Below are positions 32,755-33,236 of a stretch of DNA of 64,000 nucleotides, piece by piece (position 1 is the stretch's first letter; every line of letters begins with the position of its first letter). The stretch is from contig NW_024468569.1 of assembly GCF_001632365.1 (NCBI RefSeq), positions 1 to 64,000 on the forward strand, written 5' to 3'. Both the position numbers and the translations under genes were made by a program. The notes under the pieces were generated by a model. The model was not told the origin of the DNA. It searched no databases and worked only from the letters and a program-made list of their open reading frames with translations. The DNA is from Laetiporus sulphureus 93-53. Taxonomy: Eukaryota; Basidiomycota; Agaricomycetes; Polyporales; Laetiporaceae.

Positions 32755-33236
32755 ATGCCTCTCATTGAAGTGAGTTGTGCCACTTTATGTTGCTAGAGCT
32801 ACTGCTCACTGGATCTTGCTGTGTTATGATTTCACTGGCGTGGCTCACCTCCGCAATCCATTTCCTGTTGCGTGATCTCCCGGACGAACGTCTGTTGGGA
32901 CGGACAGGTCATTGCAAACGATCGTCTGGGTCGCAAAGGCACGTTCCTATTTGCGACAATGCCGGTCTTGGCTTAACAGTTGGTGTTATAGTTCGCGTCA
33001 AGTGCAGCCCTGATGACACTGTCGGCGATCTCAAGAAGCTCATCGCCGCACAGACGGGTACAGACGCATCCAAGATTCAGCTGAAGAAATGGCATGTCCT
33101 TTCTAAACCTTTGGTTTACACCACACATAGATCAGGCTGACTTGTGGTGATCCACAACAGGTATACGATCTACAAGGACCACATCACACTAGCAGACTAT
33201 GAGATCCACGACGGGATGAGTCTTGAGATGTATTGA
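32755..33236 (+). CDS. HUB1: HUB1/UBL5 ubiquitin-like splicing modifier
   Basis: Four exons (32755–32769, 32908–32938, 32992–33091, 33161–33236) give exactly 73 residues, the usual UBL5/Hub1 length: MPLIE, VIANDRLGRK, VRVKCSPDDTVGDLKKLIAA, QTGTDASKIQLKKW, YTIYKDHITLADYEIHDGMS, then LEMY. It lacks the C-terminal di-glycine of conjugated ubiquitin-like proteins, as expected: Hub1 binds Snu66 (HIND) non-covalently and influences 5' splice-site choice. Intron 1 (138 nt) is GT–AG. Introns 2 (32939–32991, gcacgt…tatag) and 3 (33092–33160, gcatgt…acag) begin with GC. Nearby GT donors give wrong frames and destroy the conserved protein. See findings. Confidence 0.95.
32939..32991 (+). other. GC–AG intron 2 of HUB1
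   Basis: Donor AAAG|gcacgt, acceptor ttatag. The split Val codon (G|TT) is restored. The nearest GT, 4 nt downstream, leads to a stop a few codons after the junction. Confidence 0.85.
33092..33160 (+). other. GC–AG intron 3 of HUB1
   Basis: Donor AATG|gcatgt, acceptor cacaacag. The Trp codon of KKW-YTIYKDH is split TG|G. Using the GT at 33096 gives WHVYDLQG, not the invariant WYTI. Confidence 0.85.

What the first reader, a model, noticed from the sequence alone, without database searches (positions are those of the whole stretch)
32755..33236. HUB1 itself carries two GC–AG introns: possible autoregulatory splicing
Seen: the 73-residue UBL5/Hub1 protein is recovered only if introns 2 and 3 start with GC (32939 gcacgt; 33092 gcatgt). 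All nearby GT donors break conserved residues. Known: Hub1 binds Snu66 and promotes use of non-canonical 5' splice sites in yeast, and GC–AG introns are rare (around one percent in fungi). Two of three introns in this one small gene being GC–AG is unlikely by chance. Inference: splicing of HUB1 pre-mRNA may depend on Hub1 level, making a feedback loop.
Basis: partly seen in the sequence, partly recalled or inferred. Interest (0 to 1): 0.78.

Follow-up and report, generated by a model that had tools for sequence, protein, structure and literature searches.

The report
HUB1 gene with two GC–AG introns
A fungus's gene for the splicing helper Hub1 really does contain two introns with the rare GC start, and some related fungi share one or the other, but the signs point to ordinary well-tolerated introns rather than a proven self-control loop.

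Summary
The window carries the only Hub1/UBL5 match found in its 38.6 Mb genome. Introns 2 (GCACGT) and 3 (GCATGT) need GC donors: none of 31 enumerated all-GT models scores near the GC/GC model. At the published fungal GC-AG rate, 1.009%, two of three is 3e-4 for a gene named in advance, but 0.2 such genes are expected among an assumed 150 splicing genes.
New: read-through and mis-annotated Hub1 proteins expose the donor's second base. Intron 3 reads GC in 8 of 10 listed Rhizoctonia/Ceratobasidium records and in Amylocystis; intron 2 in Grifola; P0242 probably has both. GT prevails otherwise: outside NCBI, 98 of 102 readable proteins at intron 3 and 25 of 27 at intron 2.
Both donors keep -1G, +3A, +5G and +6T, with flank scores at the 83rd and 95th percentile of predicted GT donors, as compensated GC introns do. 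Hub1-sensitive splicing of HUB1 is possible but unshown, and would be positive feedback. Real, mildly unusual, recurrent; autoregulation unproven.

The parts
32755..32769 (+). HUB1 exon 1 (MPLIE)
32770..32907 (+). intron 1, GTGAGT..CAG, 138 nt, canonical
32908..32938 (+). HUB1 exon 2 (VIANDRLGRK plus first base of the next codon)
32939..32991 (+). intron 2, GC-AG: AAG|GCACGT..TAG, 53 nt; in-frame stop if retained; a second AG at 32978-32979 would add 4 residues in frame
   Evidence: C at +2 also read in Grifola P0106 and in P0242, P0254
32972..32977 (+). possible branch point CTTAAC of intron 2
   Evidence: read by eye; inference
32992..33091 (+). HUB1 exon 3 (VRVKC...LKKW, ends TG of the Trp codon)
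33092..33160 (+). intron 3, GC-AG: ATG|GCATGT..CAG, 69 nt; in-frame stop if retained
   Evidence: C at +2 also read in Rhizoctonia, Ceratobasidium, Amylocystis and unnamed proteins
33137..33141 (+). possible branch point CTGAC of intron 3
   Evidence: read by eye; inference
33161..33236 (+). HUB1 exon 4 (YTIYKDHITLADYEIHDGMSLEMY, stop)

Best explanation
This is an ordinary single-copy Hub1/UBL5 gene, probably of an agaricomycete fungus, two of whose three introns have GC donors. Each most likely arose by a T-to-C change at +2 in a donor whose other positions (-1G, +3A, +5G, +6T) pair well enough with U1, U5 and U6 to compensate, and both are spliced constitutively by the major spliceosome. Such changes seem to have occurred more than once at these two introns, and GC is the prevailing state at intron 3 in the listed Rhizoctonia/Ceratobasidium records. 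Shown: gene structure, GC donors, recurrence in other fungi, strong flanks. Inferred: constitutive splicing and the mutational route.
For: GC/GC is the only enumerated scheme that restores the conserved protein. Flank scores of the two donors lie at the 95th and 83rd percentile of 163 GT introns predicted in this genome (predicted introns, so the comparison is partly circular). A review passage states that human GC sites keep -1G and +5G, compensating for +2C; both donors here do. Relatives mix GT and GC at the same introns: outside NCBI, intron 3 GC in 4 of 102 and intron 2 GC in 2 of 27 readable proteins; besides Grifola (intron 2), Amylocystis and 8 of 10 Rhizoctonia/Ceratobasidium records (intron 3). 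A mixture is what drift between two tolerated donors predicts.
Against: GC at HUB1 introns 2 and 3 looks somewhat commoner than 1% (P about 0.02 and 0.03 before allowing for relatedness and search bias), while intron 1 read GT in 11 of 11; and two genomes, this one and probably P0242, have GC at both. Neutral drift does not predict that. No RNA data show efficient splicing.
Confidence: 0.78

Rival explanations
1. Hub1-dependent positive autoregulation: introns 2 and 3 need Hub1 on the tri-snRNP (via the Snu66 HIND) to be spliced well, so low Hub1 leaves them in, premature stops follow, and Hub1 falls further; stress-induced Hub1 would switch its own splicing on.
For: Hub1 promotes non-canonical 5' splice sites in yeast (passage). 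This genome has an intact-looking HIND in Snu66. Retention of intron 2 or 3 gives truncated proteins. GC recurs at these two introns, probably at both in P0242, while intron 1 read GT in 11 of 11 relatives (recounted by hand: of 17 rows I dropped P0087, P0093, P0105, P0050 and P0099 as spliced and P0039 as unclear). A paper on Hub1 overexpression in yeast speculates on positive feedback within Hub1's network, not on HUB1 introns (passage, PMC12502333).
Against: Not general: most readable relatives have GT. Flanks are strong, not weak. Hub1 help is cited for +3/+5 changes, and these positions are intact here. In yeast hub1 deletion left a suboptimal RPL22B site and the staggered GCR1 sites unchanged (passages). 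A stop in a retained intron is commonplace. A purely positive loop is risky for a gene reported essential in fission yeast (passage).
Confidence: 0.12
2. Chance plus selection of the reader's eye: GC introns are scattered at about 1% and one of many splicing genes happened to hold two. (This does not exclude the best explanation; it says that nothing beyond it needs explaining, so the odds overlap.)
For: About 0.2 of an assumed 150 splicing genes would carry at least two GC introns at 1%, about 0.5 at 1.5%. The window is one of many read. Intron 3 counts are not above 1% if only His/Gln readings are taken as GC (2 of 102, P=0.28).
Against: Recurrence of GC at the same two introns in other fungi, including the prevailing intron-3 GC reading in Rhizoctonia/Ceratobasidium.
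Confidence: 0.55
3. The GC donors are sequencing or assembly errors, or the true donors lie elsewhere.
For: No reads were available to check.
Against: Two independent errors would be needed, both at +2 of otherwise good donors. No enumerated GT scheme fits. C at +2 is also read in other fungi.
Confidence: 0.03

Closest known systems
SRC1 (HEH1) of budding yeast, Hub1-dependent alternative 5' splice site
   Same: A 5' splice site that needs or favours Hub1; called non-canonical (passages)
   Different: SRC1 has two overlapping competing donors and two protein isoforms (passage). At HUB1 here the GT four bases downstream looks poor (GTTCCT, GTCCTT) and shifts the frame. Hub1 need is unshown here
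Prp5/Hub1 feedback in budding yeast (cryptic splicing of PRP5)
   Same: A tie between Hub1 activity and splicing of a splicing-factor transcript (passage, names Hub1-dependent use of a non-canonical PRP5 site; the negative loop itself is recalled)
   Different: There the loop acts on PRP5 and is negative; the proposed HUB1 loop would act on HUB1 itself and be positive
Compensated GC-AG introns of the major spliceosome (about 1% in fungi)
   Same: GC at +1/+2 with -1G and +5G kept (passage), AG acceptor
   Different: Nothing beyond two in one three-intron gene

Membership tests
Hub1/UBL5 | Near full-length match to known Hub1/UBL5 (residues 3-73) | tested here: met
   Human UBL5 4pyu E=5.9e-35, yeast HUB1 3plu E=6e-23. 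Pfam gives only the general ubiquitin families over cut-off; NCBIfam gives only a Rad23 match far below its cut-off
Hub1/UBL5 | No C-terminal Gly-Gly | tested here: met
   Ends SLEMY
Hub1/UBL5 | Asp that salt-bridges the HIND arginine (human D22, passage) | tested here: met
   Aligned Asp conserved
Hub1/UBL5 | HIND partner in the tri-snRNP of the same genome | tested here: met
   SISLEETNKIRISLGLKPL at the start of Snu66, compared by eye with human SLSIEETNKLRAKLGLKPL; no HIND matched by regex in the Prp38 loci. Binding not tested
U2-type GC-AG intron | GC at +1/+2 and AG at the end | tested here: met
U2-type GC-AG intron | -1G and +5G kept | tested here: met
   AAG|GCACGT and ATG|GCATGT
U2-type GC-AG intron | Spliced in vivo at that donor | not testable with these tools
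   no RNA data
Autoregulatory splicing-factor gene | Unproductive form made by retention or alternative splicing | tested here: inconclusive
   Retention would truncate the protein, which is commonplace; no form observed
Autoregulatory splicing-factor gene | Splicing outcome changes with level of the protein itself | not testable with these tools
   needs depletion or overexpression
Autoregulatory splicing-factor gene | Regulatory element conserved in relatives | tested here: not met
   Not general: outside NCBI 98 of 102 GT at intron 3 and 25 of 27 GT at intron 2; GC prevails only in the listed Rhizoctonia/Ceratobasidium records, at intron 3 (8 of 10)

The most novel reading that the evidence does not exclude
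HUB1 introns 2 and 3 act as a Hub1 sensor in some Agaricomycetes: GC donors, gained repeatedly at the same two introns and kept in Rhizoctonia/Ceratobasidium at intron 3, make HUB1 expression depend on Hub1-assisted 5' splice site transfer, a positive self-switch tied to stress.
Probability: 0.1. Interest if true: 0.75.

Novelty: new member of a known kind. Interest (0 to 1): 0.36.

Why it matters
If Hub1 controlled its own GC introns it would be a simple genetic switch on splicing fidelity and a clean natural substrate for Hub1. Even as an ordinary feature it has a practical use: unrecognised GC donors appear (inference) to have made public HUB1 protein models wrong in several fungi (retained introns, truncation or extra residues in P0036, P0053, P0069, P0106, P0122, P0123, P0220, P0224, P0226, P0236), and such models can be used to read donor bases without access to the genome.

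Tried and rejected
Census of GC-AG introns in the own genome: I wrote a small gene finder in Python. The first version ran away and is discarded. The second gave 163 introns in 39 genes. With GC allowed at a prior of 1% it called 1 GC of 181 introns, at a weak donor (CCA|GCGCGT); eight decoy dinucleotides gave 0 to 3 each. At a prior of 3% it called 5 GC of 180 (one with strong flanks, CAG|GCATGT in L009) and 1 to 8 of each decoy. So it shows only that GC is rare (one search crashed on N). HUB1 itself scores -13, below the threshold, so the census misses GC-bearing short genes like this one. An intron-signature pattern count was too noisy and was dropped.

U1 snRNA by Rfam in the own genome: no match, but no control genome rang either, so it says nothing. 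Rfam (gathering cut-offs) and tRNA scans of the window: nothing. First HIND scan looked at one strand only and printed nothing; one search scanned both. Structure prediction was not used.

Rows dropped or set apart in the donor counts. 'NCBI' below is my hand-made list of proteins whose sources include ncbi; the rest ('outside NCBI') are mostly unnamed metagenome proteins of unknown taxa, some perhaps not agaricomycetes; 87 hits; P0094 was counted; six animal-type rows were left out; outside NCBI 73 rows: 46 GT, 2 Ser, 8 spliced, 17 without the motif, 0 GC; NCBI 7 rows: 2 GC, 2 GT, 2 spliced, 1 without motif; 72 new proteins of 120 listed (280 hits); one animal-type row left out; outside NCBI 58 rows: 52 GT, 4 GC, 1 Ser, 1 spliced; NCBI 13 rows: 4 GC, 3 GT, 5 spliced, 1 without motif. 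(best 120 of 1260): 95 spliced, 20 without motif, 3 GC (P0036, P0053, P0069), 2 with Tyr. NCBI rows are biased towards GC, because models go wrong there. Ser can be TCN or AGY and was left out. Arg is read as CGN (GC); AGR (a GA donor) cannot be excluded; with only His/Gln counted, intron 3 is 2 of 102. A protein that ends at KKW is taken to end at a stop codon. For intron 2, P0223 (doubtful; with it 3 of 28) and P0207 (Ser) were left out. One search used slightly wrong totals (50 and 107, and 57 with a Ser row); one search corrects them. The query came from the window's own GC read-through, which favours GC hits, fully listed, has 0 GC of 46 outside NCBI. P0122 and P0236 are nearly the same protein, so the ten Rhizoctonia/Ceratobasidium records are not independent.

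Full report
What is there. The window (G000, contig C60) holds a Hub1/UBL5 gene on the plus strand at 32755-33236. Four exons join to a 73-residue protein that matches human UBL5 (4pyu, E=5.9e-35) and yeast HUB1 (3plu, E=6e-23) over residues 3-73, with the HIND-binding Asp conserved and no terminal Gly-Gly. It was the only match found in the genome by DNA and by protein. Its best-scoring named relatives are agaricomycete Hub1 proteins, at 97% identity or less (best 120 of 1260 listed); the order of the window's species was not determined.

The donors. Intron 1 is GT-AG. Intron 2 is AAG|GCACGT..TAG (53 nt) and intron 3 ATG|GCATGT..CAG (69 nt). With intron 1 fixed, 31 stop-free models use only GT donors for introns 2 and 3; the best scores 311 against Hebeloma Hub1, the GC/GC model 371. 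The GT four bases inside each GC donor would shift the frame.

Is it more than chance. A survey gives 1.009% GC-AG in fungi (PMC7072748, passages). Two of three at that rate is 3.0e-4. Because the interest lies in 'a splicing gene with two GC introns', the fairer number is about 0.2 expected among an assumed 150 such genes of six introns. My census of this genome (264 kb with about 13 kb of N; gene finder written here) gives 1 GC of 181 introns, no more than decoys, a 95% range of 0.01% to 3%.

Reading donors in other fungi without their DNA. Intron 3 starts after TG of the Trp codon, so in a protein that reads on into the intron the residue after KKW spells +2 to +4: stop, Tyr, Cys, Phe or Trp mean GT; His or Gln mean GC; Arg almost surely GC. 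For intron 2 two of the reading frames are informative (Lys-Val means GT and Lys-Ala GC; or Gln-Arg followed by Tyr, Cys or Phe means GT and by His means GC). I read these residues (87 hits, all listed; best 120 of 280 listed). Outside NCBI, intron 3: 0 GC of 46; 4 GC of 56 among the new proteins (P0232 His, P0228 Gln, P0227 and P0242 Arg); together 4 of 102, 95% range 1.1-9.7%. Intron 2: 2 GC of 27 (P0242, P0254). P0242 has both if its Arg is CGN. NCBI records, where a wrong model favours GC: intron 3 GC in 6 of 11 readable, and in 3 of 5. By name: Grifola frondosa intron 2 (P0106); Amylocystis lapponica intron 3 (P0123); and of ten listed Rhizoctonia/Ceratobasidium records eight show Gln (P0069, P0122, P0220, P0226, P0236) or Arg (P0036, P0053, P0224) after KKW, one has lost that junction (P0083) and one is spliced there and says nothing (P0214). 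Taiwanofungus (P0245) reads GT at intron 3. Intron 1 read GT in 11 of 11 (recounted by hand after dropping five spliced rows and one unclear one). So GC is a minority state at both introns, recurrent, and prevailing in one group at intron 3. The excess over 1% is slight (P 0.02 and 0.03), ignores relatedness, is inflated by the query, and vanishes for intron 3 if Arg readings are not counted (2 of 102, P 0.28).

How it most likely works. Both donors keep -1G, +3A, +5G and +6T; their flank scores sit at the 95th and 83rd percentile of 163 predicted GT introns here. A review passage (PMC11732430) says that human GC sites keep -1G and +5G, compensating for +2C, and that yeast work suggests that changes at +3 or +5 may need Hub1. 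By that rule these donors should be tolerated without special help. The partner needed for a Hub1 effect is present: Snu66 begins with a HIND (SISLEETNKIRISLGLKPL). Introns modelled in Snu66 (5; the model misses the first exons) and Prp38 (6; weak model) are all GT. Hub1-dependent use of non-canonical donors in SRC1 and PRP5 is reported in yeast (passages), so a Hub1 effect on HUB1 is not far-fetched; but hub1 deletion left other suboptimal yeast sites unchanged (passages), and on HUB1 it would be positive feedback, since less Hub1 would mean more retention and less Hub1. I hold it at about 0.1.

What is in print. In the held library my searches listed no paper whose title or start of abstract reports GC-AG introns in HUB1/UBL5 or self-regulation of its splicing; each listing showed only the top 12 to 20 of 37 to 545 papers. 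Of seven papers I saw passages that the find function returned (PMC8431670, PMC7072748, PMC3983031, PMC4141198, PMC7615767, PMC11732430, PMC12502333), and of PMC10216172 too, which is not used here; none was read whole. The 2011 Nature paper could not be read. SRC1's donor letters and the PRP5 negative loop are recalled.

Verdict. A confirmed, tidy observation; a mildly unusual gene; a reasonable but unproven mechanism. New here is the evidence that GC donors recur at the same two HUB1 introns in other fungi without being general.

Noticed in passing
G000:C13:9612-13074 (L025, L027, L029, L030): A second, degenerate SART-1/Snu66 copy with stops in its frames and no HIND by regex, besides the intact-looking gene on C73.
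   Followed up: partly
public records P0036, P0053, P0069, P0106, P0122, P0123, P0220, P0224, P0226, P0236: HUB1 protein models that look wrong, probably because a GC donor was not recognised: retained introns, truncation or 3-4 extra residues.
   Followed up: yes
window 32978-32991: Two AG acceptors 12 bases apart at intron 2; the upstream one would insert VGVI in frame.
   Followed up: partly
window 29015-31084, 31324-32342, 51242-53264, 54054-58199: Predicted neighbours that look, from recall only, like a TRAPP subunit 11, a glutathione S-transferase, a Nab2-like zinc-finger protein and a carbamoyl-phosphate synthase large chain (gene models; no family search run).
   Followed up: no
window 18204-20036 and 23243-24840: Two neighbouring predicted membrane proteins that resemble each other closely by eye, a likely tandem duplication.
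   Followed up: no
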